From Lachnospiraceae bacterium (lineage in GTDB: Bacteria; Bacillota; Clostridia; Lachnospirales; Lachnospiraceae), in contig JAAWBG010000027.1 in the NCBI GenBank assembly GCA_022792535.1, positions 1-45,912 of the forward strand: a stretch of DNA of 45,912 bases, given 5' to 3'. Positions 7,853 through 45,912 of the stretch are shown here, in pieces (position 1 is the stretch's first letter; every line of letters starts with the position of its first letter). The position numbers and the translations under genes are program-made. The notes below the pieces were generated by a model, which made no database searches, was not told where the DNA came from, and saw only the letters and a program-made list of their open reading frames with translations.

Positions 7853-7865
7853 TTCCATCCTCCTT

Positions 7866-8726
7866 CTAATCTTTTTGAACGGTTTTCTTATCCAATATCA
7901 CCAGGACTTCCTGCAAGTGCTGGAAATCCACTGCAGGGGTAATGGTCCCTGAGTAAGTCAGGTTATTGGAATCCCGCTCAATGGTACTTACGTAGCCGAT
8001 CAGGATTCCCTCTAGGTATTTGTCACTGATATGGGAGGTTACAATCTGCTCTCCTGTCTCTATGGCTTTTTCATCGCATTTCAGATCCGTAAATTCAATG
8101 ACTTGCTTTTCATTCATAGTTGCAAGATTTCCATGTACAATACATCGGTCTGCTGTGGACAAAGCCATACCGCTTACATTGCTGGCGTCGTCAATGACAG
8201 CCCGGACTTTGGCATAATTGGGTCCCGTGTCAATGACAATACCTACCAGACCGCTGCCGGCAATTACATTCATATCTTTTTCAATGCCGTCCTTGCTTCC
8301 TTTGTCAATTAAAAAAGTATTAAACCAATTACCACCGTCATTTCCGATTACCCTGGCTGCAACTTTTTTGTAACTGGGATATTTTTGATCCAGTTCCATC
8401 AGCTCCCGCAGGTTGTCTAACTCATACTGTTCCAGCTTAATGGTATTCAGCTGCTGGGTCAGACGGTCCACTTCTTCCTGCAGTTCTTTATTGTCCTGCA
8501 TCACATCCCGCATGGACTTTAGGTCATCTGCTCTGGATACAAACCAGGAACCAATCGTATTGATCCCCTTCTGCATGGGTACAAACACATATCCGGCAAT
8601 GGTATTGAGAGGACCTCCCGACAGATTCAGAGTAAAACTTACAAACATGAGAAGAATGCAGAATCCTGTCAGGATCAGCAGTGAATATTTAGTTGGAATC
8701 GAATGTTTCGTTGATTTACGTTTCAT
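7866..8726 (-). CDS. mreC: Rod shape-determining protein MreC
   Basis: Bitopic elongasome scaffold that activates PBP2/RodA outside the membrane. It has a cytoplasmic basic start, one membrane helix (about residues 14-34), a coiled coil (about 65-105, 'QLNTIKLEQYELDNLRELMEL') and the paired beta-barrel MreC domain with 'VIGNDGGNWFNTFLIDKGSKDGI' and 'GLVGIVIDTGPNYAKVRAVIDD'. At 286 residues it is typical. It lies 14 bases after mreB and 13 before mreD. Confidence 0.94.
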   Translation of the reverse strand: MKRKSTKHSIPTKYSLLILTGFCILLMFVSFTLNLSGGPLNTIAGYVFVPMQKGINTIGSWFVSRADDLKSMRDVMQDNKELQEEVDRLTQQLNTIKLEQYELDNLRELMELDQKYPSYKKVAARVIGNDGGNWFNTFLIDKGSKDGIEKDMNVIAGSGLVGIVIDTGPNYAKVRAVIDDASNVSGMALSTADRCIVHGNLATMNEKQVIEFTDLKCDEKAIETGEQIVTSHISDKYLEGILIGYVSTIERDSNNLTYSGTITPAVDFQHLQEVLVILDKKTVQKD

Positions 8727-19177: not shown

Positions 19178-20463
19178 AGGCCACCTCTTTTTTTCTGAAA
19201 CTCATGCTCCCAATGAGCTTCTTTTCCACAAAAACCAGCGGCGGAGATTCCTGCCATATACCCGCTGGTCCAGGCCCATTGCAAGTTATAGCCGCCGCAC
19301 ATACCATCTATGTCCATAACCTCCCCTGCAAAAAAAAGCCCGTTGACTCGTTTTGATTCCATAGTTTTCGGACAGATCTCATCTGTGTCAACGCCGCCGG
19401 CTGTTACCTGGGCTCCGTCAAACCCTTTGGTTCCTATTACATCCACTGTGAAATTCTGTGTCTGAAAGGCCAGGCTCTTTCGTTCTCTTTCACTGCAGCG
19501 TACCGCTGGTTTCTCCGGTATGATCTTACTCTTCTTCAACAAGACGAGATTGAGTTTTTCTGGAAATAATCCAATCAAAGCTTCTCTGGCAGTCTTGTCT
19601 GCGCCCCAAACATAAAATCGGTTTTCTAACAATTCTTCTGTCTGCTTCCGATTCAAATCTGGAAGAAAGTTGATACTTGCCCTCACCTTTTTGTCATAGA
19701 GAAGACCATAGGCTCCATAGCGGCTGACCTGAAATACCGGAATACCGGAAATACCAAAAGAAGTCAGTTGAAGTTCTCCTCTGTCCTCTGAAATTTTTTC
19801 ATCATCTATGTAAAGTTCCACCTTACCGTCTGCACGAATTCCTGCAATTTCTTTGAAAAATGACTGTTTTACTTGCAATTGCACCAACGCAGGCACGATA
19901 TCTGTCAATTTATGTCCGAAACTTACAAGATAGGGAATGCCGCTGCCATCGCTGCCCGTCTGTTTCGCCGCTTTTCCACCAGTGGCAATAATACAGGATC
20001 TACTCTGAAATCCTCCTTGTTTGGTCTGAAAGAGAAAAAAATCATTTTCTTTTTGAATGGAACGAATACCAATCTCATAACCTATGGATACAGAGAGTCT
20101 TCGACATTCCATCAACAGTACTTCCCGTATGGCAGAGGCTTGTCCGCTTGCAGGATAATAATAGCCATCTCGTTTGCTCCTGGGCTCTATTCCCAGTTCC
20201 TGAAAAAAGGCCAATGTTTCTTTCAGGCCAAACTGTTCCAGCGCAGGCAAGACAAAGGCAGGGTTCTTGCCTCTGTAATATGCAATGCCCTGCTTTTCAT
20301 TGGTAAAATTACATTTTCCATTTCCTGTGGCAAGGATCTTCTTCCCTGCTTGATCCATATGTTCTAAAATGAGAACCTTTGCACCTGCTCTTGCCGCCCA
20401 GATTCCTGCAGTAAGACCCGCTGCCCCTGCCCCCACAACGATCACATCAAATTGGTTTTTCAT
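19174..20463 (-). CDS. NAD(P)/FAD-dependent oxidoreductase, HI0933/BaiN-like family
   Basis: 429-residue flavoprotein with N-terminal 'VIVVGAGAAGLTAGIWAARAGAKVLILE' (residues about 7-34), 'KKILATGNGKCNFTN', 'ATGGKAAKQTGSDGSG' and C-terminal 'GLFFAGEVMDIDGMCGGYNLQWAWTSG'. These are hallmarks of the HI0933/BaiN-like family (Rossmann fold plus inserted domain). Some members are bile-acid 3-oxo-delta4-cholenoate reductases, but most have no proven substrate, so no symbol is given. It is the first gene of the repair operon, behind a strong promoter. Confidence 0.87.
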   Translation of the reverse strand: MKNQFDVIVVGAGAAGLTAGIWAARAGAKVLILEHMDQAGKKILATGNGKCNFTNEKQGIAYYRGKNPAFVLPALEQFGLKETLAFFQELGIEPRSKRDGYYYPASGQASAIREVLLMECRRLSVSIGYEIGIRSIQKENDFFLFQTKQGGFQSRSCIIATGGKAAKQTGSDGSGIPYLVSFGHKLTDIVPALVQLQVKQSFFKEIAGIRADGKVELYIDDEKISEDRGELQLTSFGISGIPVFQVSRYGAYGLLYDKKVRASINFLPDLNRKQTEELLENRFYVWGADKTAREALIGLFPEKLNLVLLKKSKIIPEKPAVRCSERERKSLAFQTQNFTVDVIGTKGFDGAQVTAGGVDTDEICPKTMESKRVNGLFFAGEVMDIDGMCGGYNLQWAWTSGYMAGISAAGFCGKEAHWEHEFQKKRGGL

Positions 20464-33733: not shown

Positions 33734-34195
33734 ATGGCAAATTATCATACATCATCTGATTGCGGCTGCAGCCAGAATATGCCTCAGTGCCAAATGCCAG
33801 GCAGACCTTGTTCTGGAGGTATGCCAAAGCGTCAGATGCCCCAGAAACCATGTCCGTCTCAACGACAGATGTCACCAAAACCATGTCCGGCAAGTATGCC
33901 GCCCTGTCAGGGAACGCCAAGGCCATGCCCAGCAAATGTACCGCCCTGTCAGACAATGCCCAAACCATGTGCAGATATGCCAAAGCATCCCGTTATGCCA
34001 AAACCCGCATGTCCTTCCATGCCGAAAGAATATTTCGATAAATTAGATCTCTTGGCCGGTATGCCTATTGCAATGGCCTATGTTCCATGGCAGTTTTTCC
34101 ATGAAACCTTTGAGCCTGATAAAGCATTAGAATGCGGTACGATCTTTCCGGAATTAAGCAAACCCTTTTGTGGGAAAGGAGGCTGCCCGAAATGA
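33734..34195 (+). CDS. cotJA: Spore coat associated protein CotJA with Cys/Pro/Met-rich extension
   Basis: 153 residues. The C-terminal 55 or so are the CotJA domain ('GMPIAMAYVPWQFFHETFEPDKALECGTIFPELSKPF'), a small component of the spore coat. The N-terminal 95 residues are an extension made of short Met-Pro-x and Pro-Cys-Pro units with about 12 cysteines, so the protein is nearly twice the usual CotJA length. The cysteines may give cross-linking or metal binding in the coat (inference). The start is ATG with AAAGGA upstream. Its stop overlaps the cotJB ATG as ATGA. Confidence 0.88.
   Translation: MANYHTSSDCGCSQNMPQCQMPGRPCSGGMPKRQMPQKPCPSQRQMSPKPCPASMPPCQGTPRPCPANVPPCQTMPKPCADMPKHPVMPKPACPSMPKEYFDKLDLLAGMPIAMAYVPWQFFHETFEPDKALECGTIFPELSKPFCGKGGCPK
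33881..33964 (+). repeat. 42-bp tandem repeat inside cotJA
   Basis: Two consecutive 42-base units encode PCPASMPPCQGTPR and PCPANVPPCQTMPK. The bases of the two units agree at most positions, consistent with a recent duplication. Shorter, more decayed copies (PCP/KPC) flank them. Confidence 0.75.
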
Positions 34196-34458
34196 AAGGA
34201 AATCAGATTGAACAGATGAAATTATTTCAATGGATCAATATGGTGAGTTTCGCAGTGAACGATATTACACTGTATCTTGATACCCACCCTATGGATCAGG
34301 AAGCGATTGCCTACTTTAATCATTTTCGTGAGATTCGCACAAGCGCTTTAAAAGAATATGAAAATTGCTATGGCCCCCTTACCATTGACACGGCAGCGCC
34401 AGATCAAAAATGGCTGTGGGCAATGCAGCCAATGCCTTGGGAAGGAGGAAACTGTTAA
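34192..34458 (+). CDS. cotJB: Spore coat protein CotJB
   Basis: 88-residue CotJB: 'QWINMVSFAVNDITLYLDTHPMDQEAIAYF' followed by 'YGPLTID' and the Trp/Pro-rich end 'WLWAMQPMPWEGG', a signature of the family. ATG at 34192 follows AAAGGAGG and overlaps the cotJA stop. Its own stop overlaps the cotJC ATG (TAATG). It normally acts with CotJA and the catalase-like CotJC in an inner coat layer. Confidence 0.93.
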   Translation: MKGNQIEQMKLFQWINMVSFAVNDITLYLDTHPMDQEAIAYFNHFREIRTSALKEYENCYGPLTIDTAAPDQKWLWAMQPMPWEGGNC

Positions 34459-34676
34459 TGTGGAATTATGAAAAACGATTACAATATCCAGTCAATATTA
34501 CTCAGACCAACCCCCAGATCGCCCAGGTGATCATCAGTCAATTCGGCGGCCCCGACGGTGAGCTCTCCGCTTCCATGCGCTATTTGTCCCAGCGTTATAC
34601 CATGCCTTACCGGGAAGTTGCAGGGCTGTTGACCGATATCGGTACAGAATCCTCTGAAATGTTCACATTCTGGTAA
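34458..34676 (+). pseudogene. cotJC: Interrupted cotJC (5' part only)
   Basis: Codons 1-64 encode a perfect CotJC N-terminus ('MWNYEKRLQYPVNI', 'ISQFGGPDGELSASMRYLSQRY', 'GLLTDIGTE'). CotJC proteins are manganese-catalase-like and about 190 residues, and continue from here with a metal-ligand segment (ELAHLEM-like). Instead the frame runs into eight foreign codons (SSEMFTFW) and stops, leaving 72 residues without any of the later metal ligands. The break coincides with the end of the recombinase element. The 5' part shows no other damage, which suggests a recent or reversible interruption. The 3' part is not in the window. Confidence 0.9.
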
Positions 34677-36058
34677 TTCCAGGAAAAGGGGAGCCATTTT
34701 AAGTACACATCTATATTATTTTTATCCTTTACCACTATTTTCTCCAGAATCTCTTTGTAGAACTCGTCTTCATATTCCACCCCTTCCATAAGTTCCTCAA
34801 CTGCCTCTGCAATTTTGCTGAAATCTGTGCCTGCATGATCTCCTGTAACTGCAGTTCTGATTATGCCAAGCAGATGATTTCTTATGTTCTTCTTATTGTA
34901 TTTTAAACTTTTTGTAACAAGATATATCATAGAAACAAGTTCTTCATTTCGCAGGGTAATCCCCATACATCCAACTTTATTTCCTGCTTTGTCCATATGA
35001 AGACTGCCATATTTCACCGCCTCATTACAGCGCCATGCTTTATACTGACTTCCATCTTTTCGCGTCCGACACCTTGCCACATAGCTGGAACCGCAGCATC
35101 CGCATTTGATTTTACCGGAAAAGAGATAACGTCTGCTGTACTTTGCTTTTCCCTCCTGAGACAGGGAACGTTCATCTAAAATACGGTTTGCTTCTTCGAA
35201 CATTTCACGGGATATAATTGGTTCATGATGGTCTCTGATAATGATAAATTCTTCCTGTCCCCGATTGTATTTTTTCTCATGAGAAAGAAAATCAGGCGTA
35301 TACGTTTTTTTCTGCACCAAATCACCGCAGTATTTCTCATTGCGGAGAATACGAAGGATCACCGTATTCTGCCATTTTTTTGCCTGCCGCATAGGCTGTA
35401 TTCCCGCCTCCTGAAGCTCACGGGCAATGGTGTGGGTGCCTTTCCTTTCATGGACAAATTTATGAAAGATAAGACGGACAATTTCTGCCCCTTCTTTGTT
35501 AACATACATACTGCCATTTTTCACATCATAGCCAAGCATACTCCGTCCAAATACAACACCCTGCTCCATCCTGCGTTTCTGTCCCCACTTGACACGTTCA
35601 GAAGTTTTACGGCTTTCTTCCTGGGCAATCGAAGACATAATGGCAAGACGAAGCTCCGCATCTCCATCTAAAGTATTGATATTGTCATTTAAAAATAAAA
35701 CGCCCACACCGTGACGTTTCAAATCACGGGTGTAATAGATACTGTCCAAGGTATTTCTGGCAAAACGAGAAATCTCTTTTGTGATAATTAAGTCAAAATC
35801 TCCATTTTGAGCACAGGCAATCATGCGGTTAAATTCTTTCCGTTTTTTTGTGTTTGTTCCAGAGATTCCTTCATCTGCAAATATTTCGCAAAGCTCCCAA
35901 TTGGGCGTGCGCTCAATATACTGCTTGAAAAACCTGCACTGGCTTTCAAAAGAATTTGCCTGATCCTCCTTGTCGGTTGATACACGGCAATACGCCGCCA
36001 CACGCTTTTTCTTTTCCGTCATTTTTCGCTCTTGGTTTAAGCGTTCGTATCGATCCAT
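34607..36058 (-). CDS. Large serine recombinase (site-specific integrase/excisionase)
   Basis: 483-residue recombinase. The N-terminal resolvase domain has the catalytic Ser in 'AAYCRVSTDKEDQ' (Ser27) and 'ITKEISRFARNTLDS' with the active-site Arg. The recombinase domain covers about residues 165-290 ('GYDVKNGSMYVNKEGAEIVRLIF'), then a zinc ribbon ('KCGCCGSSYVARC' and a later Cys pair) and a C-terminal coil. It starts at ATG with AAGGAG seven bases upstream. The last dozen residues and stop are encoded by the antisense of cotJC, so the C-terminus depends on the integration site. It most likely catalyses integration and excision of the element in cotJC. Confidence 0.93.
   Translation of the reverse strand: MDRYERLNQERKMTEKKKRVAAYCRVSTDKEDQANSFESQCRFFKQYIERTPNWELCEIFADEGISGTNTKKRKEFNRMIACAQNGDFDLIITKEISRFARNTLDSIYYTRDLKRHGVGVLFLNDNINTLDGDAELRLAIMSSIAQEESRKTSERVKWGQKRRMEQGVVFGRSMLGYDVKNGSMYVNKEGAEIVRLIFHKFVHERKGTHTIARELQEAGIQPMRQAKKWQNTVILRILRNEKYCGDLVQKKTYTPDFLSHEKKYNRGQEEFIIIRDHHEPIISREMFEEANRILDERSLSQEGKAKYSRRYLFSGKIKCGCCGSSYVARCRTRKDGSQYKAWRCNEAVKYGSLHMDKAGNKVGCMGITLRNEELVSMIYLVTKSLKYNKKNIRNHLLGIIRTAVTGDHAGTDFSKIAEAVEELMEGVEYEDEFYKEILEKIVVKDKNNIDVYLKWLPFSWNYQNVNISEDSVPISVNSPATSR
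34641..34649. other. Putative attachment-site junction (attL) in cotJC
   Basis: Native cotJC sequence ends at or within GGTACAGAA (codons Gly-Thr-Glu of the conserved IGTE). Homology to CotJC is lost from 34650. The crossover core should lie in or just beside these bases; the exact dinucleotide cannot be fixed without the other end. Confidence 0.6.
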
Positions 36059-36094
36059 CGCGGTACTCCTTACGACATAAAATACAAAATCACT

Positions 36095-36298
36095 CTACTT
36101 AGCATTATTTTCCTGCTGAAAACTGTATTGTTTTTCTAAAATGAGCAAACATTCATTTTTTTGAGACGGCGTCAGTAAGTTCCGTTTTTCCAAAGATATC
36201 AGAATAGCTTTTTGCATATTCATAAAAAAAGCTGGATAATCTTTCTCTTTCAACTCTGGGACTAACTCTCCCACATAGACGAATTCCTTTTGTTTCAT
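36095..36298 (-). CDS. Small protein upstream of recombinase, unknown function
   Basis: 67 residues, charged, with a C-terminal helical part ('LLTPSQKNECLLILEKQY') and the core 'YPAFFMNMQKAILISLEKRN'. Not recognised. It has a strong GGAGGTG ten bases before its ATG and lies 36 bases upstream of the recombinase, on the same strand and behind the same promoter. By analogy with small partners of serine recombinases, it could be a directionality or expression regulator, but no DNA-binding motif is evident. Confidence 0.7.
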   Translation of the reverse strand: MKQKEFVYVGELVPELKEKDYPAFFMNMQKAILISLEKRNLLTPSQKNECLLILEKQYSFQQENNAK

Positions 36299-36338
36299 GC
36301 AGCAGACACCTCCCTGATTTCTAATATATGAGGCAGTG

Positions 36339-36368
36339 ATTGTACCATAGTAGTACTTTCTATGTGAA
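36339..36368 (-). promoter_or_regulatory. Promoter with internal inverted repeat for small ORF-recombinase
   Basis: Minus strand TTCACA (36363-36368), 18 bases, TACAAT (36339-36344) with TG one base before the -10. Between and over the boxes lies an inverted repeat CATAG (36346-36350) / CTATG (36360-36364), a possible operator. A sequence CATATATT (36323-36330) also fits a SigE -10 perfectly but lacks a good -35. Confidence 0.55.
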
Positions 36369-36483: not shown

Positions 36484-38832
36484 TTATTTCTTAACTTTGC
36501 CGCTTAATTTTACTTTGCTCCATGTGCCGTATAAGGTTTCTTTGCCATACTTCTTATAACTGCGCACTCTTACATAATATTTCTTGCCCTTCTTTAATTT
36601 TGTGAAGGTGTAAGAAGTTTTTGATAAACTCTTAGATTTTACGCTTTTCTTAAATTTCTTATCCGTACTTACCTGAACCTGATACTTTGACGCCATTTTA
36701 TCTTTGGCCCATTTCACAGTCAGTTTTCTGCCCTTTCCTGCTTTTATTGATTTTACAGACTGTTTTTTCGGGCTTACTTTAACTGTCACCTTCTTGGAAG
36801 CTTTTCCTGCCTTGATGGTTATGGTGGCAACTCCAGTATTTCTGATTGTTACCTTTCCAGTCTTCTTATCTACAGAGGCAATTTTAGGCTTAGAACTTGT
36901 AAAGGTCATCTTGCTCTTAGAAGATGCATTGATTTTAAATGGCTTTGTGCCATATGCAACTTTATACACAGTTTTCTTACAGGTAATCGACTCTGCTGGA
37001 TTCTGATCTGCCGCCTTTGTGATAGTAAATTGAACCGTCTTACTGCCAGTATACTTTCCTTTGCCTGTAACAATTGCCTTAGCTGTTCCCACTTTAATAT
37101 TATTACTATACGAAACAGTGTAGTCTGTATTTAATACTAATGTTTTACCATCCAGTTTCACGGTTACAGATGGAGTTTTAGGCTTTCCATCATAAGGATA
37201 GCTTGTTTTTGCCAATGTGACGGTCCCTTTGGAAAGATCAACCCTGCTCTCTGAATTGTCATTATTCCCCGGATGATCACCACTGCTGTTATCATTACTA
37301 TCATCGCCAGTATCAGGATCTGGAGGGGAAGGGGGAACATAATTGTAATGTATCGCCGCCTTTGACACTGCTGTTCCTGTATCGCCCATTTTATTTATGT
37401 TCTTCCACTGGGCTTCCGTGCCGGTAAAATATATATCTTTTAGAGGACAGGCTGAAAAAGCAGCTGATCCTATTGTCCTTACGCTGTCTGGAATGATAAC
37501 TGTAGTCAAACGGGAACAGGAAGCAAATGCCTGGAATCCGATGCTCTCTGCACCTTTTGGAATCTCCACTCCTGCAAGACAGATACAATTCTGAAACATG
37601 CCGTCTCCAATGCGGTCAATGTTTCGGGGCAGCGTTACATTGGTCAGATCATAACATTGTGTAAATAGATTGTCGCCTAGTTTTACCTGCCCGCTGCCAG
37701 GAGCAAAAACTGCGCTTGTCATTTCCTGGCATTGAAAAAATGCTGCGGAACCAACCTCTCTGACACTGGCAGGTAAAGCGATAGAAGTAAGGCTCATACA
37801 TGCAGAAAAAGCATTTTGGCCGATGGTCTCCACACCTTCGGAAATAGACACTGAACTAAGGTTCTGACATTGGCGAAAAGCACTGTCGCCGATGGTTTTC
37901 ACACTAGAGGGGAGCGTCACAGAAATAATGGAAGATTGGCGGAACGCACTGTTTCCAATTGTTGTCACGCCGACGGGAATCTCTACGCTAAGAACCCCGC
38001 AGTTCCAAAAAGCACAGGAGCCGATGCTGGTAATACCATTTTGAATAATAACTTTACGAATCTGGCTGCTGTGTTTGACCCAAGGCTGCTGCTCAGCACT
38101 GTCAAAATCCGGCATTGCTCCTCTGCCAGAGATCGTTACCGTACCTGCCTTAGTCAGACTCCAGGTAAATCCTTCACCAAAATTTCCAGTTCCAATAATC
38201 GTATTGGCACTGGGATCATTGGGTGGAACGTAGCCTTCTGGATAACGGGTGATGTAATGGCTGGTATTGCGCATTACTTCTTCTCTGGATATTGTTCGTC
38301 CCCAATGGACTTTGCCTTTGTGGTCTCCAGTACTTATGTTGCCTTCTGCCACAACCACGCCTGCATCAATTACATCCAGCACAATTACAGTATGGGCGTC
38401 ATTATTTAACCGCAGAATATCCCCAACCTTTATATTTTCAAAGGAAAATCCGCCTGATGCGTACATTCTGGCAGGCAGACTGCCAAATGCTGCATCGCTT
38501 AGTATAAAAGCAAATGCCACGCATCCCACAGCATGGATTCTCTTCCCATCAATATTTCCACCTTTCCAATAGTATCCATTTGAGCCGGAATAAGGTTCAT
38601 TATTCGTCCAAGTCGTCCCTTCTTTATAAGCATCCTGATCCTTTAGAGCAATCATTGCTTCATAAACTTCTGCCGGCGCCAAAGACCCGCTGCTGCGGGC
38701 AGTCAATCTGGCATCCTCTTCCATAAGAGGGTTCTCCTGCTGGAAAGATTCTTCCTGCCAGGCATATACCATTGACTGAGAAGAAATAGAGAAACATAAT
38801 GCTAAAATAACGGAAAGAATTCGTTTTTTCAA
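36484..38832 (-). CDS. Secreted NlpC/P60-like + BspA leucine-rich repeat + Ig/Fn3 surface protein
   Basis: 782 residues, exported (signal peptide to about residue 25, 'SMVYA'). Residues about 55-205 form an NlpC/P60- or CHAP-like domain with candidate Cys in 'HAVGCVAFAF' and His in 'NDAHTVIVLDV'. About 215-500 are BspA-type (LRR_5) repeats such as 'CAFWNCGVLSVEIPVGVTTIG'. After a Asn/Asp/Ser linker come an MBG/Ig-like domain ('YDGKPKTPSVTVKLDGK'), a BIG2-like domain and a Lys-rich Fn3 domain to the end. There is no sortase motif. The start is TTG with GAGG eight bases upstream. It probably binds surfaces or remodels wall; the enzymatic activity is unproven. Confidence 0.82.
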   Translation of the reverse strand: MKKRILSVILALCFSISSQSMVYAWQEESFQQENPLMEEDARLTARSSGSLAPAEVYEAMIALKDQDAYKEGTTWTNNEPYSGSNGYYWKGGNIDGKRIHAVGCVAFAFILSDAAFGSLPARMYASGGFSFENIKVGDILRLNNDAHTVIVLDVIDAGVVVAEGNISTGDHKGKVHWGRTISREEVMRNTSHYITRYPEGYVPPNDPSANTIIGTGNFGEGFTWSLTKAGTVTISGRGAMPDFDSAEQQPWVKHSSQIRKVIIQNGITSIGSCAFWNCGVLSVEIPVGVTTIGNSAFRQSSIISVTLPSSVKTIGDSAFRQCQNLSSVSISEGVETIGQNAFSACMSLTSIALPASVREVGSAAFFQCQEMTSAVFAPGSGQVKLGDNLFTQCYDLTNVTLPRNIDRIGDGMFQNCICLAGVEIPKGAESIGFQAFASCSRLTTVIIPDSVRTIGSAAFSACPLKDIYFTGTEAQWKNINKMGDTGTAVSKAAIHYNYVPPSPPDPDTGDDSNDNSSGDHPGNNDNSESRVDLSKGTVTLAKTSYPYDGKPKTPSVTVKLDGKTLVLNTDYTVSYSNNIKVGTAKAIVTGKGKYTGSKTVQFTITKAADQNPAESITCKKTVYKVAYGTKPFKINASSKSKMTFTSSKPKIASVDKKTGKVTIRNTGVATITIKAGKASKKVTVKVSPKKQSVKSIKAGKGRKLTVKWAKDKMASKYQVQVSTDKKFKKSVKSKSLSKTSYTFTKLKKGKKYYVRVRSYKKYGKETLYGTWSKVKLSGKVKK

Positions 38833-38860
38833 TTGTTCAACCTCATTCTATTTTTATATT

Positions 38861-38888
38861 ATTATAGTCATTCAGAAGAAAGTGTAAA
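38861..38888 (-). promoter_or_regulatory. SigA-type promoter for the surface-protein gene
   Basis: Minus strand TTTACA (38883-38888), 16 bases, TATAAT (38861-38866), overlapping the last codons of the chemoreceptor gene. It gives a leader of about 25 bases. Confidence 0.6.
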
Positions 38889-40841
38889 CTGATCCACCAA
38901 TTTTTTCAGGCAGACAGCCTCGGCAGAAAGCTGTTCACTTGCAGCGGCACCTTCTTCGGCAGTAGCGCTGTTGCTCTGTACAACAGCCGAAATCTGATTA
39001 ATCCCTTCAGAAACCTGTTCCACTGACTCAGACTGTTCATTGGATACGATCGCAATATGATCCATGGAATCCGCCACAGACTGAATACTGTTTACAACGC
39101 CCAACAGAACATCTGCTGTATTTTGGGAGATTTCTGTACCAATATGTACTGCGTCCGTAGAATTTGCAATTAAGTTCGATGTATTTTGCGCCGCCTGTGC
39201 AGATTTACCGGCCAAATTGCGGACTTCCTCTGCAACAACTGCAAATCCTTTTCCGGCGCTGCCGGCTCTGGCTGCCTCCACTGCCGCATTCAATGCCAGT
39301 ATATTTGTCTGGAATGCAATATCGTCTATTGTCTTCAGAATCTTTTCAATCTCCTCAGAACTGGTCTGAATTTTATCCATAGCTTCTACCAAATTCTGCA
39401 TCTTCTGGTTGCACAGGAGAACTTCTTTTCCAGTCTGATGTGTCTGACTTCTTACGTCTAATGCTCCGTTTGCCGTCTCTTTTACTTCTTCCGAAATAAG
39501 ACTAATCCGGGCTGCCAGTTCCTGTACTGAGCTGGCCTGTTCTGTGGTACCCTGGCTAAGGGTCTGGGCGCTTGAGGATAATTGACTGCTGGCGTTGGCC
39601 ACTTCCTCCGCCGAACGATTCACCTGACGCATAGCATTGCTCAGTTCAACCCGCATGTTGCGCATGGAAAGTAAAATATCGTGAAAACTTCCCACATATA
39701 CTTCTTCATGTTCTGTGTGAACATCCAGGTTCTGATTTGCCATCTCATTGAGCAGATAGCTGATATCGCTAATAACCGTGCGCAACCCTTCTACCAGAGC
39801 TTCTGTGGACTGAACCAGAACACCAGTTTCATCCTTATTGGCAACATGGGGCATGGGCGTTTCCAAATCCCCCTCTACCAGCAGCTTCATTCGATTTACA
39901 CAAGCCTTCATCGGTCTGCCGATATTGCGGGCCAGAGCTAAGGCTACAATCACAGAAAGCAATATGGAAACCAAAATTACTGCAATGTTGATCACCATTG
40001 CATCCCGTGTGGATTTCAGATAGTTGATCTGGGGTGCAGTTACCGCGATGCTCCATCCATCCGTATTCGGCACAGGAGCATAGGCCGCAAACATTTTATC
40101 TTTTCCCTTTGTATAGCTTCCGAAACCATTTTTTCCCTGACACATTTCAGCATGAATCGCTGCCAGTTCTTTCAGCGCTGGATCCTTTTTCGCCTCGGTT
40201 TCAATATTTTGAACTGTAATTGTATCAAGGGTAATATCGGCAATTGTATCACCAGACTTATTAATCATGTAAGCTCTGCTGTTTTCACCAATCTGAATAG
40301 CCGATACAATATCGTTTAAAAAAGTCTCACGGGGAACAAAATATACAACGCCCACAATTTCTTTTTCAGAGTTTCCCTCCGCATACAAAGGCGCTGCTAC
40401 CATAATGGACAATTCTCCCGTGACTTTACTGATCAGAGGCTCCGATACAAAAATATTTCCCTCCATGGCCTGACGTACATATTCACGATCTGAGTAATCA
40501 TTTCCATCGAAAATACTAATACCATCCGCCCCCACAATATTTCCTCTCTGGAAGCCATGCATGGAAACGCGCTCGTCAATAATGGTCTGTTTTTCTTCGA
40601 TTGACACTTCCGGATCGGCAAGCTGGGGCATACACCCAACCTCCATGACAACATTTTTATACACCTCAAGTTCCTGCTGTACACGTCCCGCTGCAAGGAC
40701 TGCTGTCTGTCCCATCATCTGCTCTACCGTAGACATAGTATTATTGTAGTTTAATCCAATACTTGAAGATCCGGATGCGACCAAACCAACCAGAACAGTC
40801 AGGATAAGGCATAAGTTGATTTTTGTTCGAATACTTTTCAT
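38868..40841 (-). CDS. Methyl-accepting chemotaxis protein with dCache sensor
   Basis: 657-residue transmembrane chemoreceptor. It has membrane helix 1 (about 8-30), a dCache-like extracellular sensor (about 35-275; '[33 protein letters not shown]', '[16 protein letters not shown]', '[17 protein letters not shown]'), helix 2 (about 282-304) and HAMP ('[23 protein letters not shown]'). The cytoplasmic signalling domain holds the hairpin-tip sequence '[23 protein letters not shown]'. The ligand is unknown; dCache domains of this kind often bind amino acids or other small metabolites. No cheA/cheW lies nearby, so it works with core genes elsewhere or was acquired alone. Confidence 0.93.
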
Positions 40842-40915
40842 TTCATTGTTACCTCCCGCTTACATAACTGAAATATAAGAATTCAGATCAACACTTTATT
40901 AATTCTTACTAAAAT

Positions 40916-40945
40916 ATTATATTAGCTGTTGTCAATATTTGTCAA
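40916..40945 (-). promoter_or_regulatory. Strong SigA-type promoter for the chemoreceptor gene
   Basis: Minus strand TTGACA (40940-40945), 18 bases, TATAAT (40916-40921): both boxes match consensus. TTGACAA occurs twice, ten bases apart, around the -35. The leader is about 65-70 bases and includes GGGAGG before the ATG. Confidence 0.75.
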
Positions 40946-41010
40946 CTATTATCTAGCTTCGAGTTCCTGCGGATTTTAGCCCTCTGGGAACTGCAAAAAT
41001 AGAAATTATT

Positions 41011-41799
41011 TTATGAATCCGTAGAACTTAAAATCTTCTCAATCTCAGCAAGAAGCTGATCTTTTACCGCCGGTTTTAGAAAATATCCAGCTGGTTTTAA
41101 CTTTAGCACTGCCTCAATATTGGCCCGATTATTTACAGCAGTTAAAAAGACCACCGGGATATCCTTCATATCCTCATCGGCACGTATCATTTCCAATGTC
41201 ATTTTTCCATCACAGATAGGCATTTCATAATCCAAAAGGATCAGATCTGGACGTTTTTTTCCAATGGAAGTCATTGCCTGGGCGCCGGAGATTGCCAAGG
41301 TAACCTCATAGCTGTCCTCCAGCATTGCCTTCATGGTTCGAAGAGCTGTCCCATTGTCATCTACCACCAGAATCCTCTTTTTTCCCTGGGTCCCTCCTCG
41401 TTCCGCTGCCGCCTCCCTCTCTACTTCCTCTTTTTTCAATCCAAGTCTTCTGCACACAGCGTTCATAATCACGGTATTTTCCACTGGACGGATCAGATTT
41501 TCAAACTGACTTTCCTCATAATATTTAAAAAAGGTACTGCTTTCTTCTTTCGTTCCAATGGTTAAAACAGGGGTTTGAGGATACTGGTCACTCAGCAGAA
41601 AAAACATAGATGTGTCAATACCATACGCGCCGATTAAACTGATCAAAACTAAATCAGGATTTACGATTTTCAACATGCCCCCTAAAACCTCGGCATTTTC
41701 TGAACAAAGCTGTACATGAAAGAACTGTGACAAAAACGTATTTGTCTCTTTCACCACACTATTGAGTTTTCCTATCAGCAAAATCTTTTTCACTTCCAT
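41011..41799 (-). CDS. Response regulator with pseudo-receiver and receiver domains
   Basis: 262 residues. The N-terminal 125 residues have the layout of a receiver domain ('KKILLIGKLNSVV', 'PDLVLISLIG') but lack the acidic pair and the phospho-acceptor Asp. The C-terminal domain is a complete receiver: 'RILVVDDNGTALR', phospho-Asp in 'PDLILLDYEMP', 'VVFLTA' and Lys in 'YFLKPA'. There is no DNA-binding or enzymatic output, so it would act by protein contact or as a phosphate relay/sink. It follows the hybrid kinase by 18 bases on the same strand and is presumably its partner. Confidence 0.88.
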   Translation of the reverse strand: MEVKKILLIGKLNSVVKETNTFLSQFFHVQLCSENAEVLGGMLKIVNPDLVLISLIGAYGIDTSMFFLLSDQYPQTPVLTIGTKEESSTFFKYYEESQFENLIRPVENTVIMNAVCRRLGLKKEEVEREAAAERGGTQGKKRILVVDDNGTALRTMKAMLEDSYEVTLAISGAQAMTSIGKKRPDLILLDYEMPICDGKMTLEMIRADEDMKDIPVVFLTAVNNRANIEAVLKLKPAGYFLKPAVKDQLLAEIEKILSSTDS

Positions 41800-41817
41800 T
41801 TTCCTCCAATCACTGAC

Positions 41818-44800
41818 TTATCTTTTCATCTGGTCAATCAGTAAATCTCCGATCTGGTCTGCCTCTTCTGCATCCAGGTTTGTTACTGCCTCTGCTAACC
41901 TTTTGATATTCTGTTTCATTTCATCGGAATATTCATATTCCTGTAATTGTTTCATCCATTGATCTGCCTGGTCAATATCCATCTGCTGCATACTGATCCG
42001 CACCATTTCTACGAGAGCTTGTATCACGGAGGGATCTGTCACTTTCTTTTTTTCTTCGGTTCCAATACCAAAAACACCTTGTAATTTCTGCTGATAACTG
42101 CGCCACTCTTCTAAAAATGCATCTGTTACAGATAAGATCACATTTATTTTACCATCTTTCGCCGCATATTCCAATAGTTTTGCCAGGCCGGACAAAGGCA
42201 AAATTCCCACGGTGGCTGCTAAGCTTTTCATGGCATGTACTTGAATTCGATACTGTTCTAACCATTCTGGTTCTGCAATCTGTTCATATGCTTCTTCTAA
42301 ATGTTCCGCTGCAGAATCAATCTGTGCATAAAACTCTTTTACCGTATATTCTAATAATTCCATATCTGGCAAATGCATCCAGGCATACTGCCAGTCCAGT
42401 CCATCCACTTGCGGCAGTTCTTCCAACATATTTTCTGGTCTGATTTCACTGTCTTTCGACAATTCTTTCGTTTCCTTATCCAGGGAAACTTCCTGCAGCA
42501 GCTGTTTTGGCAGCAATTCCCGGATCATATTTTCCAGTTTCTCCGGAACGATTGGTTTTGAGAGGAAATCGTCAAATCCCTCTGCTAAATATCGCTCTCT
42601 TGCCCCAGATACTGCATTAGCGGTCAATACAATAATAGGTGTATTCTGACATGGGAAATCATCAAACTCCTTTATATGATGAAAAGTTTCCAGCCCATCC
42701 ATTTCCGGCATCATGTGATCCAGAAAAATTAAGTCATAGTGATTGTTCTGCACGCACTCTAAACATTCCAGGCCTCCTGCCGCCTCTGCCACCTGTATCT
42801 GCGTCTCTTTCAGGAGATTTCGAAATACTTTACGGTTGACTGCATTGTCATCTACCACCAGTACAGCTGCGTCTGGCGCGCAAAATCTAGTATTATAACT
42901 ATAATTTTCTGCAAGCTGATGAACTCTGGACTCAAAATCTCCAATGGGCGTATCATCCATGATCTCCTGTTCCAGTTCAAAATAAAACTTTGAACCTTTT
43001 CCATACACACTTTCCACCTGGAGTTTACTGCCCAGCAATTCCAGAAGCTGGATTGTGATATTTATACCAAGCCCAGTTCCTTCAATATTGCGGTTTCTGT
43101 CTTCTTCAATCCGCTCAAATTCTGCCGAAAGTTTGGGTAGATCTTCTTCCTTGATTCCAATTCCTGTATCCTCCACCTCAAATCTAAGCACCGCCTTTTT
43201 TTCTTCCCTGCGGCCTTGAATCCGAAACCATACCGTCCCTTCATGGGTATATTTTACTGCATTGGTAAGAATATTTGTCAAAACCTGACGAATGCGCACA
43301 TCATCTCCATACAAACGAGAGGGAATCGTATGTTCCGCTTCCACCTGAAGCTTAATCTCCTTTGCCTTAGCCCGCTGTGCAGCCATATTGGCCAAGTCAT
43401 GTATTAGACTGCTGACATCATATTCTACTGGTACGATTTCCATTTTGCCAGAATCAATTTTGGAAAAATCCAAGATATCATTGATCAGGGACAATAGTGT
43501 CTGCCCTGCCATATAGATATCCATGGCATAATCTTTTATGTTTTGTTCTCTGGATTCCCGCAGAATCATTTCATCCATGCCGAGTACAGCGTTGATAGGC
43601 GTGCGTATCTCATGAGACATACGCGCCAAAAATTTCCCTTTTGCTTCGTTGGCGGCCAGAGCTTCCTGACGCGCTGCGTCTGCATCCTTTTTTGCCTGAA
43701 TTAACTGGGTATTCTGCTGTTCTGTTACCTTTACTTTCTCTTCTAAAAGTTTTGCACTTTCTTCTGCTCTTGCCCGGTATTCTTTCGAAAGCTGCAGAAC
43801 ATGCATAACAGCCATCATAATACAGAACAACGTCATACTATACTGGCCCGCTGTATTTCCCCGGACATTTTCAAAAAAGGTGTTCATGATTACATTCGCA
43901 ATTCCACCTGACAGCAGTACAATCACAGACAAAATGGAAAGCCATGTCTGGTAACTTTTATTTCTATAATCAAACTGAATCAGACTTACGATCGCTATGA
44001 CACACACAGCGCCTACTATTGCTGCAGATATATTAAGCATATCCTCTAAATTTTTTAACTGCAGCAGCTGCAAAAGGATCTGTAAAGCCGCATTGAGAAT
44101 TACGCCGCACAATAACACAGAAAAGCGGCGGGGATAAATTGTACGCAGATTTCGATCAAAATATAAAGTCAAAAACAAAGGAATCAATAATACTAAATAT
44201 TCCTGCATCTCATAGGCTTCCTGTACATCGTAAAAGATACTCAAGGTATCTGTTCCGATAAAGCAGTAAAATCCTGCGGACATTCCGGTTAATCCCAAAA
44301 AAAGTTCGCCTCTGGCAGGCTGGCCAGTATATCTGCGTATCAGCGCAAGCACAAACATAATAATTGCCACAAGCATAATCAACAGACAGCACCCAATATC
44401 GGCAATGTTGTTTCCTACCAGTCCGATCACTACCACATCTCGTGACTCGACTTTAAAATTATTGAGAACAGGCACTGCATCTGGATCAGGGGAAATCAAT
44501 ACAATCCACAGGTTCCCCTCCTGAAATACTTTGGGAATATCCACAAAATGATCACTTTTTCCAGCTAATTCTTTGGAGCCTTTATTTTCCTCCATACCGT
44601 ATTGATACAGTATTGTTCCATCTAAGATGATCTGAACCCTGGCAGCTGTGGAAGAGAAATTCAGCGTAAGACCTGCATATTCAACAGGAATCGTATTTCG
44701 AAAAATAAAAGTACCGCCAGCTTTGGCTGCATCTCCTGCATAAGGCAGATCTACCTCCTGACATTCTTCTTCAAACACATCTTTGCACCACTTATCCACC

Positions 44801-45003
44801 TTCTCCTGATCTTTCAGATCCTGCCAGGATACTTCGTTACTTTCCAGAGAAGCCATCTCCCAGTCTTCATTGAAATTATATTCAATCTGATCTGGCAGCA
44901 TAGACTGCTCTTCTTCCTGCTGCTGAAATTGAAGCAGTGCGATCACCATAAAAATAAGTATAAAAAAAATCGAAATTCCCGCTAATTTTCGTAAATTATT
45001 CAT
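41818..45003 (-). CDS. Hybrid sensor histidine kinase with receiver and HPt domains
   Basis: 1061 residues. It has an N-terminal membrane helix (8-27), an extracytoplasmic domain to about 185 ('LDGTILYQYGMEE', resembling 7TMR-DISM ligand domains), and about seven membrane helices to 400. These are followed by a coiled coil and HisKA with His465 in 'FLARMSHEIRTPINAV', HATPase ('RQVLTNILTNAVKYTHEG', 'GTGLGINI'), a receiver ('AVLVVDDNAVNRKVF', phospho-Asp in 'YDLIFLDHMMPEMDG', about 725-850) and HPt with His about 923 in 'VHAMKSLAATVG'. This is a full intramolecular phosphorelay. A plausible promoter lies at 45043-45071 (TTGAGG, 17 bases, TGGTAATAT). It is probably co-transcribed with the downstream regulator. 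Confidence 0.92.
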   Translation of the reverse strand: MNNLRKLAGISIFFILIFMVIALLQFQQQEEEQSMLPDQIEYNFNEDWEMASLESNEVSWQDLKDQEKVDKWCKDVFEEECQEVDLPYAGDAAKAGGTFIFRNTIPVEYAGLTLNFSSTAARVQIILDGTILYQYGMEENKGSKELAGKSDHFVDIPKVFQEGNLWIVLISPDPDAVPVLNNFKVESRDVVVIGLVGNNIADIGCCLLIMLVAIIMFVLALIRRYTGQPARGELFLGLTGMSAGFYCFIGTDTLSIFYDVQEAYEMQEYLVLLIPLFLTLYFDRNLRTIYPRRFSVLLCGVILNAALQILLQLLQLKNLEDMLNISAAIVGAVCVIAIVSLIQFDYRNKSYQTWLSILSVIVLLSGGIANVIMNTFFENVRGNTAGQYSMTLFCIMMAVMHVLQLSKEYRARAEESAKLLEEKVKVTEQQNTQLIQAKKDADAARQEALAANEAKGKFLARMSHEIRTPINAVLGMDEMILRESREQNIKDYAMDIYMAGQTLLSLINDILDFSKIDSGKMEIVPVEYDVSSLIHDLANMAAQRAKAKEIKLQVEAEHTIPSRLYGDDVRIRQVLTNILTNAVKYTHEGTVWFRIQGRREEKKAVLRFEVEDTGIGIKEEDLPKLSAEFERIEEDRNRNIEGTGLGINITIQLLELLGSKLQVESVYGKGSKFYFELEQEIMDDTPIGDFESRVHQLAENYSYNTRFCAPDAAVLVVDDNAVNRKVFRNLLKETQIQVAEAAGGLECLECVQNNHYDLIFLDHMMPEMDGLETFHHIKEFDDFPCQNTPIIVLTANAVSGARERYLAEGFDDFLSKPIVPEKLENMIRELLPKQLLQEVSLDKETKELSKDSEIRPENMLEELPQVDGLDWQYAWMHLPDMELLEYTVKEFYAQIDSAAEHLEEAYEQIAEPEWLEQYRIQVHAMKSLAATVGILPLSGLAKLLEYAAKDGKINVILSVTDAFLEEWRSYQQKLQGVFGIGTEEKKKVTDPSVIQALVEMVRISMQQMDIDQADQWMKQLQEYEYSDEMKQNIKRLAEAVTNLDAEEADQIGDLLIDQMKR

Positions 45004-45139
45004 TTTATCTTCCGTCCTGATCTATATTTCTACTGTTTCTTCATATTACCACAATTTTCTATATTCCTCAATACAGTGATATTGGAGTTTCTATATTTTT
45101 ACAATATTCCATATATCCTGCAAAAACCTGCTGATTTTA

Positions 45140-45168
45140 TTGCAAAAAAAGTTTTTCAAAGATATACT
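45140..45168 (+). promoter_or_regulatory. SigA-type promoter for the VOC gene
   Basis: TTGCAA (45140-45145), 17 bases, TATACT (45163-45168). Transcription should start near 45175, giving a leader of about 60 bases that contains the hairpin at 45187-45201. Confidence 0.7.
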
Positions 45169-45186
45169 TATAGACAGGATGTCAAA

Positions 45187-45201
45187 AGCACCTTTGGTGC
45201 T
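45187..45201 (+). promoter_or_regulatory. Short inverted repeat in the VOC gene leader
   Basis: AGCACC TTT GGTGCT is a perfect six-base inverted repeat with a three-base loop, just after the predicted transcription start. It could be an operator or a 5' RNA hairpin. No T run follows on the plus strand, so it is not a plus-strand terminator. Confidence 0.45.
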
Positions 45202-45234
45202 ATATAAAAAATAGAAAACAAAAGGAGTTCTAAA

Positions 45235-45597
45235 ATGAAATTAAAGAATGTTCTTATGGTTGTAAATGATATCGAGAGATCGATCGCTTTTTACAGAGAT
45301 CTTTTTGGTTTAGAAGTGATCTTAGATCAGGATGGAAATGTTATTATGACAGAAGGTCTTGTGCTGCAAGACGCTAAAATATGGAAAAACTTTCTTGGGC
45401 GGGATATCATTCCTCAAAATAACGCTGCCGAACTGTATTTTGAGGAACGAGAGATTGAAGCATTTGCAGATAAACTGGAAGCTTACAGCCAGCCCATTGA
45501 ATACGTTAATCGATTGATGACCCACAGCTGGGGCCAGAAGGTGATTCGCTTCTATGATCCAGACGGGAATCTGATTGAGGTTGGAACGCCTATATAA
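45235..45597 (+). CDS. VOC (glyoxalase/bleomycin-resistance) family protein
   Basis: 120-residue single-domain VOC protein with paired beta-alpha-beta-beta-beta modules: 'NVLMVVNDIERSIAFYRDLFGLEV' at the start and 'SWGQKVIRFYDPDGNLIEVGTPI' at the end, which carries the usual metal-ligand Glu. The metal-dependent substrate is unknown; the superfamily includes glyoxalase I, dioxygenases and antibiotic-binding proteins. It has ATG with AAAGGAG upstream, its own promoter, and is the only plus-strand gene of the right third. Confidence 0.88.
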   Translation: MKLKNVLMVVNDIERSIAFYRDLFGLEVILDQDGNVIMTEGLVLQDAKIWKNFLGRDIIPQNNAAELYFEEREIEAFADKLEAYSQPIEYVNRLMTHSWGQKVIRFYDPDGNLIEVGTPI

Positions 45598-45698
45598 CGA
45601 AATCTTATGGCTTTACAGGTATAAAACCCACGCGATACCCCATTAAATCAGTTTTCTTTGTAAAAAATTTCCGCCAGCATCAGGTTTGTACTGCAAAA

Positions 45699-45912
45699 TC
45701 ATTTCCCTTCATTTATTATTTCGCGCAGAACTTTCAGTGCCTTTGTATGCAACAGCTTTACATAGCTGTATGAAAGATCCATTATTTCTGCGATACTTTT
45801 CAATGTTTTCCCGCTATAATAGTGCAGGATAATAATATCGCGCTCCCGCTGTGAGAGCTGTTCGAGAGCGTCTACAAGACTTTTGAGCGTTTCCTCGTTA
45901 AGCATTTCCTCA
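45699..45912 (-). CDS. Sigma-70 region 4-like protein (5' end outside window)
   Basis: At least 70 residues of a C-terminal helix-turn-helix: 'LEQLSQRERDIIILHYYSGKTLKSIAEIMDLSYSYVKLLHTKALKVLREII', the region-4 pattern of sigma-70 family proteins that reads the -35 box. The frame stays open to the window edge (Glu-Glu before the first visible Met), so the true start is off the window. Such small sigma-like proteins are common on conjugative elements and also in the chromosome. Which applies here cannot be told. Confidence 0.75.
   Translation of the reverse strand, partial: EEMLNEETLKSLVDALEQLSQRERDIIILHYYSGKTLKSIAEIMDLSYSYVKLLHTKALKVLREIINEGK

What the first reader, a model, noticed from the sequence alone, without database searches (positions are those of the whole stretch)
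34458..36298. cotJC interrupted by a serine-recombinase element: candidate skin-like, developmentally excised intervening sequence
The sequence shows an intact cotJA-cotJB and a perfect cotJC beginning that stops being CotJC exactly after the conserved IGTE codons, where a large serine recombinase gene begins in the opposite orientation. Elements with a recombinase at their edge inside sporulation genes (skin in sigK, and interruptions of spsM and spoVFB in Bacillus) are excised in the mother cell to rebuild the gene. Finding the same architecture in a coat gene encoding a catalase-like protein of a Lachnospiraceae-type organism suggests a further case. The 5' fragment carries no other damage, which fits a gene still under selection.
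Basis: partly seen in the sequence, partly recalled or inferred. Interest (0 to 1): 0.9.

Follow-up and report, generated by a model that had tools for sequence, protein, structure and literature searches.

The report
Removable DNA inserts splitting spore genes
In this gut bacterium the gene for a spore-coat catalase is cut in two by a stretch of DNA carrying its own cutting-and-joining enzyme, placed so that removing it would restore the gene exactly, and the same arrangement recurs at several places in this gene in many relatives and in other spore genes of the same genome.

Summary
In detail: cotJC stops after codon 64 beside a serine recombinase gene. The missing 3' part lies on another contig of the same genome (C101). 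The parts join in frame into an open 200-residue CotJC, and no second copy was found. Both outer flanks abut in seven relatives with an intact gene, and the two element ends form one palindrome centred on the shared GG. Of 298 genomes sampled from the family, 189 have a cotJC match; among the 67 of them without a strong full-length hit, 52 carry the gene in two or three separated pieces and no full-length copy. Splits lie at about five positions, and recombinases sort into clades by position. 43 of 43 genes reconstructed by script are open. The window's own genome also has split spoIVA, cspB and a D,D-carboxypeptidase gene, with recombinases between the pieces. Best reading: mobile elements excised in the sporulating mother cell, as skin is. 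Excision was not observed, the element's size here is unknown, and elements move between species, which weakens decay tests. New variant of a known kind.

The parts
33734..34195 (+). cotJA, first gene of the cotJ operon
   Evidence: Pfam PF11007
34192..34458 (+). cotJB
   Evidence: Pfam PF12652
34458..34642 (+). cotJC 5' part (codons 1-62 up to the crossover); similarity runs to 34649 because the core is shared
   Evidence: 3' part is on contig C101 from base 1018
34641..34642 (.). inferred crossover dinucleotide GG in core GGTACAGAA (34641-34649)
   Evidence: GG in attL and attR of 15 of 15 elements tested, and centre of the attP palindrome (17 of 25 pairs in this genome, 2-7 at offsets of one to three bases)
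34643..34667 (.). element end: right half of attP with arm GAAATGTTC, inverted repeat of the arm GGAACATTAC on C101
34607..36058 (-). serine recombinase, 483 aa; member of clade A of cotJC-targeting recombinases
   Evidence: Pfam; tree
36095..36298 (-). 67-aa ORF, conserved next to clade-A recombinases; candidate recombination directionality factor (inference only)
   Evidence: 18-sequence alignment; two-helix model pLDDT 89.5; no Pfam match and no PDB fold match below E 0.2
36323..36352 (-). promoter-like site upstream of the small ORF (CATATATT at 36323-36330, GGTACAATC at 36338-36346); imperfect sigma-E-type -35
   Evidence: strict motif in 19 of 24 homologues; this copy is one of the 5 that fail it
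36484..45912 (-). candidate cargo: BspA-type LRR protein, chemotaxis receptor, response regulator, hybrid histidine kinase, sigma-70 region 4 fragment; glyoxalase-like protein (45235-45597, +)
   Evidence: Pfam; that all of this lies inside the element is assumed, not shown (see on the kinase)

Best explanation
The window holds one end of a mobile element that inserts by a large serine recombinase into one fixed place in cotJC (codon 62) and that is most likely cut out precisely in the mother cell during sporulation. Shown: the two gene parts, the att sites, the in-frame join, the empty site in relatives, the recombinase, and recurrence in many genera. Inferred: the recombinase, probably helped by the small protein encoded next to it and switched on by a mother-cell sigma factor, recombines attL with attR, releases the element as a circle and rebuilds cotJC, so the coat catalase is made. 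The mother cell dies, so its loss of the element costs nothing, while the spore keeps the element in its chromosome. This would explain why several recombinase lineages have settled in the same gene and in other mother-cell genes of the same genome.
For: (1) The 3' part on C101 joins to a 200-aa CotJC, with no intact copy found. (2) Empty site: the window's left flank and the C101 right flank abut (L030 and L031 1683|1684) in seven intact relatives. (3) The predicted attP made from C101 and the window is a palindrome centred on GG (17 of 25 pairs; 500 shuffles, maximum 13), which ties the two contigs together as two ends of one element; 13-21 pairs in the other 14 elements tested, above all shuffles in 13 of the 15, not in L011 and G246. 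(4) Recombinases sort by cotJC region with 99-100% support: codon ~62 (31 rows, of which L008 has no cotJC beside it), ~66 and neighbouring variants (8), ~174 (8), ~134 (6), ~30 (12); 65 rows. (5) 52 of the 67 re-examined genomes, out of 189 with a cotJC match, have separated pieces covering at least 190 of 197 positions. EF-P over the same 298 genomes: 295 with a match, 293 of them a single hit. (6) 28 of 28 inserts lying whole in a fetched locus (27 distinct; 1.6-16.9 kb) contain a recombinase. (7) 43 of 43 genes reconstructed by script are open, six of them after two joins; of 28 further sets read by eye 27 are open to the usual end. (8) The window's genome has three more split genes with recombinases between the parts: spoIVA (joined 495 aa, no gap against an intact relative), cspB and a Peptidase_S11 gene. 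spoIVA and cspBA are sigma-E genes in C. difficile (PMC3789822, passages). (9) A sigma-E-type site ATA-N16-18-CATANNNT precedes the small ORF in 19 of 24 clade-A elements against 3 of 815 control ORFs.
Against: No excision was observed. Recombinase genes can be far more alike than the hosts' cotJC (G003/G011 recombinase dS 0.02, cotJC saturated), so elements move between species, many insertions may be young, and intact pieces and low pN/pS do not prove long service while split. The coat catalases may be dispensable: cotCB and cotD mutants of C. difficile had less catalase activity but no marked coat defect (PMC11222575, passage), and 109 of 298 family genomes give no cotJC match. The window's own copy misses the strict -35 of the promoter motif. 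Recombinases of the other clades show no consistent sigma-E or sigma-K site (C 3 of 8, at different places; D 0 of 12; E 1 of 6; B 0 of 4; A2 one of each in 3; control 44 and 35 of 1165). The role of the small ORF is a guess. In this genome distance and orientation of the two parts are unknown. G168's 3' part ends about ten codons early.
Confidence: 0.8

Rival explanations
1. Ordinary integrative mobile elements that happen to use conserved cotJC sequence as attB. The insertion simply inactivates a dispensable coat gene, and the pieces look intact only because insertions are recent.
For: Horizontal movement: near-identical recombinases in hosts with saturated cotJC dS. 109 of 298 family genomes give no cotJC match. 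C. difficile cotCB and cotD mutants show no marked coat defect (PMC11222575, passage). Some genomes show a full-length paralogue beside a partial copy (G195, G140, G050, G232).
Against: No broken part in 43 of 43 reconstructed genes, and in 27 of 28 further sets read by eye. In the window's genome spoIVA is split too, and its product is listed for assembly of cortex and coat (PMC3789822). The 52 split genomes have no full-length copy. A simple hit to a dispensable gene does not explain several recombinase clades converging on it, nor the sigma-E-type site in 19 of 24 elements.
Confidence: 0.1
2. Reversible lysogeny-type switch: the element excises in part of the population at all growth stages and re-integrates, so regulation is not confined to the mother cell. 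The yin element of C. botulinum was reported excised at all time points, with a rise linked to sporulation.
For: attP, attB and recombinase look functional and mobility is evident; precedent in PMC10747680 (passages).
Against: The sigma-E-type site of clade A suggests mother-cell timing. No phage structural gene among the window genes scanned right of the junction, and no close viral relative of the recombinase in IMG/VR (one locus at 43%).
Confidence: 0.08
3. Assembly artefact or chimeric contigs in a draft genome.
For: The window genome is a draft of 150 contigs with 4.86% contamination, and the two parts are on different contigs.
Against: The same junction type occurs within single long contigs, including contigs of 2-4 Mb (G003, G004, G025), and in named isolates (Fusibacillus kribbianus L006, strain 1XD21-29 L011). 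The two ends share one attP palindrome.
Confidence: 0.02

Closest known systems
skin elements in sigK (B. subtilis, C. difficile)
   Same: Serine recombinase next to the interrupted 5' part, short att core with inverted arms, excision rebuilds a mother-cell gene in frame (C. difficile details from passages of PMC5025042; B. subtilis from passages of PMC3416734 and PMC13141910).
   Different: Target is cotJC. In the window genus sigK gives a hit over the cut-off in 27 of 29 genomes (three of these hits were flagged with stops, not examined). One gene is used at about five places by separate recombinase clades, two at once in some genomes.
gin element in gerE of B. cereus ATCC10987 (PMC5595907, passages)
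   Same: Described as not prophage-derived; the element in cspB of the window genome likewise has three recombinase genes in a row.
   Different: The cotJC element has one recombinase at the junction; sequence relation to the gin recombinases was not tested.
SPbeta in spsM (PMC4191935, passages) and yin in yabG of C. botulinum (PMC10747680, passages)
   Same: Rebuilding of a sporulation gene by a serine recombinase; RDF gene with a mother-cell-type promoter whose -35 is imperfect (sprB); heterogeneous excision (yin).
   Different: Those are prophages or prophage-like. The 28 inserts measured here are 1.6-16.9 kb, others in the genus 18-80 kb; gene content was listed for only a few.
Site-specific large serine recombinases sharing one target gene (PMC10083194, passages)
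   Same: Several recombinase clusters converge on one conserved gene.
   Different: That paper's main text does not contain the words catalase or spore, and sporulation only in a reference; supplements not read.
phi027 prophage of C. difficile R20291 (PMC11222575, passages)
   Same: Its attR lies next to a gene for a CotJC-like Mn catalase.
   Different: The passages describe the catalase gene as adjacent, not as interrupted; not examined further.

Membership tests
Sporulation gene-intervening (skin-type) element | Interrupts a sporulation gene, both parts present in the genome | tested here: met
Sporulation gene-intervening (skin-type) element | Parts in direct orientation on one replicon | tested here: inconclusive
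   Not visible in the window genome (two contigs). In relatives 32 of 33 neighbouring same-contig pairs are same-strand, the exception a paralogue fragment
Sporulation gene-intervening (skin-type) element | Site-specific recombinase at the element edge | tested here: met
   open three-domain serine recombinase; recombinase in 28 of 28 inserts lying whole in a fetched locus
Sporulation gene-intervening (skin-type) element | att cores that rebuild the gene in frame, empty site in relatives | tested here: met
Sporulation gene-intervening (skin-type) element | Recombination directionality factor in the element | tested here: inconclusive
   67-aa conserved ORF beside the recombinase; no family or fold match
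Sporulation gene-intervening (skin-type) element | Expression of recombinase or RDF under mother-cell control | tested here: inconclusive
   sigma-E-type site in 19 of 24 elements but not in the window's copy; not consistent in other clades
Sporulation gene-intervening (skin-type) element | Excision during sporulation in the mother cell | not testable with these tools
   needs cultures or reads
Prophage | Phage structural or packaging genes | tested here: inconclusive
   none among the window genes scanned right of the junction; the rest of the element is unseen

The most novel reading that the evidence does not exclude
In many Clostridia, above all Lachnospiraceae, the mother cell rebuilds several of its own genes by cutting out DNA: cotJC alone is invaded at about five fixed sites by five recombinase clades, sometimes two at once so that the gene lies in three pieces, and one genome (the window's) must remove at least four inserts (cotJC, spoIVA, cspB, a D,D-carboxypeptidase gene) to make a normal spore. 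Terminal mother cells would thus be a standing refuge for small mobile elements, a bacterial parallel to programmed DNA elimination.
Probability: 0.55. Interest if true: 0.93.

Novelty: new variant of a known kind. Interest (0 to 1): 0.87.

Why it matters
The known cases in the papers seen are single elements in a handful of genes (sigK, spoVFB, spoVR, spsM, gerE, yabG). Here about a quarter of the sampled genomes with a cotJC match in one large gut family (52 of 189) have the gene split, at several positions, by dedicated recombinases. If excision is confirmed, gene assembly by DNA removal is a routine part of spore formation in gut bacteria; genes annotated as broken or missing may be whole when needed; and a set of naturally distinct serine recombinases with known att sites and candidate directionality factors becomes available. 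It also makes testable why such elements choose mother-cell genes.

Tried and rejected
pN/pS of the two parts is like that of intact genes (5' part 0.030 against 0.025; 3' part 0.061 against 0.069), but one search shows that much of the divergence predates the insertions, so I do not use it as proof of function while split. L016/L021 (recombinase dS 0.28; parts dN 0.007 and 0.004, dS 0.55 and 0.98) is the one pair I found compatible with shared descent of the element.

Structure of the small ORF: confident two-helix model, no PDB match below E 0.2, so no support for RDF identity. Sigma-E or sigma-K sites in the other clades: not consistent. Viral origin: one IMG/VR locus at 43%; 609 phage records match, all below 60% identity.

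Dropped or doubtful rows: G106 looked split but is one gene cut by contig ends with a shared overlap and was dropped, leaving 52 of 53. G056 is a frameshift. G095 and G168 are only 44-56% identical and may be paralogues; they stay in the 52. Of the 189 genomes with a match only these 67 were re-examined, and the match list was cut by the tool. G264 and G258, split at the first site and reconstructed, are outside the 52; G159 and G165 look alike but were not fetched. The 43 genes are those for which I had fetched both parts, not a random sample, and G025/G026 are near-identical. One search covers 15 site-A elements; G294, G299, G318, G133 and G230 were not included. The tree tool warns of long branches.

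sigK in the genus, EF-P in the family and SpoIVA in the genus were chosen as unsplit controls; SpoIVA turned out to be split in the window's own genome.
Full report
What is in the window. The window is the whole of contig C99 (45,912 bases) of a draft genome of 3.19 Mb in 150 contigs, 92.7% complete. It carries cotJA and cotJB and the first 64 codons of cotJC, ending in TDIGTE. Against it, on the minus strand, lies a 483-aa serine recombinase with Resolvase, Recombinase and zinc-ribbon domains (34607-36058) and, 36 bases upstream of it, a 67-aa ORF.

The missing half. A search of the genome with the Mn-catalase family finds two matches only: this fragment and a 3' part on contig C101, whose core GGTACAGAA begins at base 1018. 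Joined there, the two give one open CotJC of 200 residues. In the seven genus relatives with an intact gene (L030-L036) the window's left flank and the C101 right flank lie side by side: in L030 and L031 the matches end at 1683 and start at 1684; in L032, L033, L034 and L036 one unmatched end base lies between, and in L035 sixteen, as the query has. That is the empty site.

How the cut is made. In 15 elements at codon 62 attL and attR share a GG; what follows it in attL (e.g. TAGAGAAGCCCCTGAAATGTTCC) and precedes it in attR (GGAACATT...) belongs to the element. The attP predicted from the two outer halves is a palindrome centred on that GG: 17 of 25 pairs for the window and C101 (shuffle maximum 13), 13 to 21 in the other 14, 0 to 8 at offsets of one to three bases. 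The observed number exceeds all 500 shuffles in 13 of 15; L011 (13 against 14) and G246 (15 against 16) do not. This identifies the crossover dinucleotide and shows that C99 and C101 hold the two ends of one element, although distance and orientation remain unseen. After a GG crossover codon 62 is rebuilt as glycine.

How common it is. Of 29 genomes of the genus, 7 have a full-length gene, 17 have complementary pieces apart (15 at codon 62-68, of which G004 and G006 are also split at codon 174-178; G007 and G028 at 174-178 only), 3 show one piece and 2 none. In 298 genomes sampled across the family, 189 have a cotJC match. I re-searched the 67 without a strong full-length hit: 5 are full length, 53 have pieces covering at least 190 of 197 positions, 8 are partial, 1 is a frameshift. 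One of the 53, G106, is a contig-end effect, leaving 52, none with a full-length copy among its matches. G264 and G258 are further split cases outside that set, reconstructed. The control gene EF-P over the same 298 genomes is found in 295, in 293 as a single hit. Beyond the family, in 195 genomes of the class (128 with a match), many best hits start or end at the same codons. One was fetched and read (G350, L191): 1-64 and 61-200 on one contig with a 45% recombinase between. I did not count the class systematically.

Several places, matching recombinase clades. The splits fall at codons of about 30, 62, 66, 134 and 174, and both parts share a core at the same codon. In 28 of 28 cases (27 distinct) where both parts and the insert lie in one fetched locus, a serine recombinase lies between or at the edge; these inserts measure 1.6 to 16.9 kb. 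A tree of 65 recombinases separates clade A (codon 62, 31 rows), a clade of codon-66 and neighbouring variants (8), C (codon 174, 8), D (codon 30, 12) and E (codon 134, 6), with 99-100% support. The row that breaks the pattern is L008, a clade-A recombinase with no cotJC piece beside it. Six reconstructed genes carry two inserts at once (G004, G006, G318, G246, G257, G076). 43 of 43 genes reconstructed by script are open over 199 to 213 codons, 255 in G076, and from codon 28 in G243. The frame was anchored on the CotJC alignment, so what this tests is the absence of stops and shifts. Of 28 further sets read by eye, 27 are free of stops after the crossover up to the usual end; the 3' part of G168, only 44% identical, ends about ten codons early.

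Mobility. Recombinases can be almost identical in hosts whose cotJC differs up to saturation (G003/G011 dS 0.02; G025/G011 0.13). The elements therefore move between species. Their other content varies in the few I listed: SDR, DUF5714 and rhodanese genes in L006 (3.8 kb), a large protein in L016 and L021, and a Spo0A C-terminal domain protein with a short recombinase in the smallest, G319 (1.6 kb). Distances of 18 to 80 kb between parts occur in the genus. In the window the 9.4 kb to the right (LRR protein, chemotaxis receptor, kinase and regulator) may be cargo, but homologues of the kinase (66-72% identical) lie in the host flank upstream of cotJA in five relatives (G003, G004, G007, G025, G026), so captured or rearranged host DNA is possible.

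Control of excision. Upstream of the small ORF clade-A elements share TTATATGGTACAATC...CTCATACATT, while sequence further upstream differs between many of them. The sigma-E form ATA-N16-18-CATANNNT is present in 19 of 24 and in 3 of 815 control ORFs. A C. difficile paper gives ATA as the sigma-E -35 motif and AC for sigma-K (PMC3789822, passages); the spacing and the CATANNNT form are recalled. The window's own copy keeps the -10 but has CTA for ATA, so it fails the strict test, as do L006, L007, L080 and L101. The elements are related, so the 24 are not independent. In C. difficile the skin RDF is a 72-aa acidic protein under sigma-E and SpoIIID (PMC5025042, passages); the 67-aa ORF is a plausible counterpart by place and size only. 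Some members of other clades have small upstream ORFs of their own. Their recombinases show no consistent sporulation promoter; clade C, with 3 of 8, is above the control rate of 44 of 1165, at three different places.

Other genes of the same genome. Chosen as a control, SpoIVA proved to be split in the window's own genome; of the other 25 genus genomes with a match 24 are intact and G010, a 63% complete draft, shows a partial hit. The parts (C56:14881-16098 and 19567-19844) share CCATACATATG, are 3,479 bases apart, and join to 495 residues aligning without gap to the protein of G005, with a 549-aa recombinase between. Checking other recombinases gave two more: a Peptidase_S11 gene beside scpA/scpB-like ORFs, split at profile position 110, with complementary pieces in 10 of 29 genus genomes; and cspB, split between prodomain and subtilase by three tandem recombinases, with complementary pieces in 6 of 29. 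In those other genomes I did not look for recombinases. The shared core is CGCCTGTG plus GGC in the S11 gene and GG only in cspB. spoIVA and cspBA are sigma-E genes in C. difficile, and the operons of the catalase genes cotCB and cotD are sigma-K dependent (PMC3789822, passages); cotJC and dacB are listed as sigma-E genes of B. subtilis (PMC3416734, passages). Calling the S11 gene dacB, and its neighbours scpA and scpB, is my inference from recall of the B. subtilis gene order and of those proteins. sigK gives a hit over the cut-off in 27 of 29.

Judgement. That several recombinase lineages target mother-cell genes, with precise in-frame att sites and almost no decayed targets, is best explained by excision in the mother cell. 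What is missing is any direct sight of excision, and the coat catalases may be dispensable (PMC11222575, passage). Literature searches in the open part of PubMed Central listed no report of a split cotJC by title or abstract start; of the eight papers I opened passages of two. Subscription papers are not held and supplements were not read. The paper on vfbin and vrin is known to me only through PMC4191935.

Noticed in passing
L189 (G000:C56:14000-20600), parts at locus 882-2099 and 5568-5845: spoIVA of the window's genome is split by a 3.5-kb stretch with a serine recombinase; core CCATACATATG; joined product 495 aa without gaps against the intact relative.
   Followed up: yes
L197 (G000:C126:5000-13000), 2151-2765 and 7063-7845: Peptidase_S11 (D-Ala-D-Ala carboxypeptidase) gene next to scpA/scpB-like ORFs split at Pfam position 110 by a 4.3-kb stretch with a DUF4368-type recombinase; complementary pieces in 10 of 29 genus genomes.
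   Followed up: partly
L196 (G000:C108:4500-15000), 7654-8151 and 1463-2806: cspB-like germination protease gene split between prodomain and catalytic domain by three tandem serine recombinases; complementary pieces in 6 of 29 genus genomes.
   Followed up: partly
L102 (G319:C99:98500-103000), 1487-1819 and 2042-2956: Smallest cotJC insert (about 1.6 kb) encodes a Spo0A C-terminal DNA-binding domain protein and a recombinase that stops early (305 aa); it may depend on another recombinase.
   Followed up: no
window 41818-45003: Histidine kinase with 66-72% homologues in the host flank upstream of cotJA in G003, G004, G007, G025 and G026 (in G026 with the regulator beside it), but right of the recombinase here: captured or rearranged.
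   Followed up: partly
L085 (G013:C4:75000-94900), 18990-19160: Genome with an intact cotJC also has, 16 kb downstream, a relic of an element end joined to cotJC codons 60-92.
   Followed up: no
L112 (G077:C68:13500-18670), 1164-1586 and 4704-5126: Two copies of the cotJC 3' part 3.5 kb apart on the same strand.
   Followed up: no
L073 2896-9056; L023 8605-12505: Three recombinases in a row: in L073 (G004) inside the cotJC insert, suggesting stacked insertions; in L023 with no cotJC nearby.
   Followed up: no
C. difficile R20291, CDR20291_1465 (PMC11222575, passages): Prophage phi027 sits next to a CotJC-like catalase gene; whether its att site lies in or near that gene was not examined.
   Followed up: no
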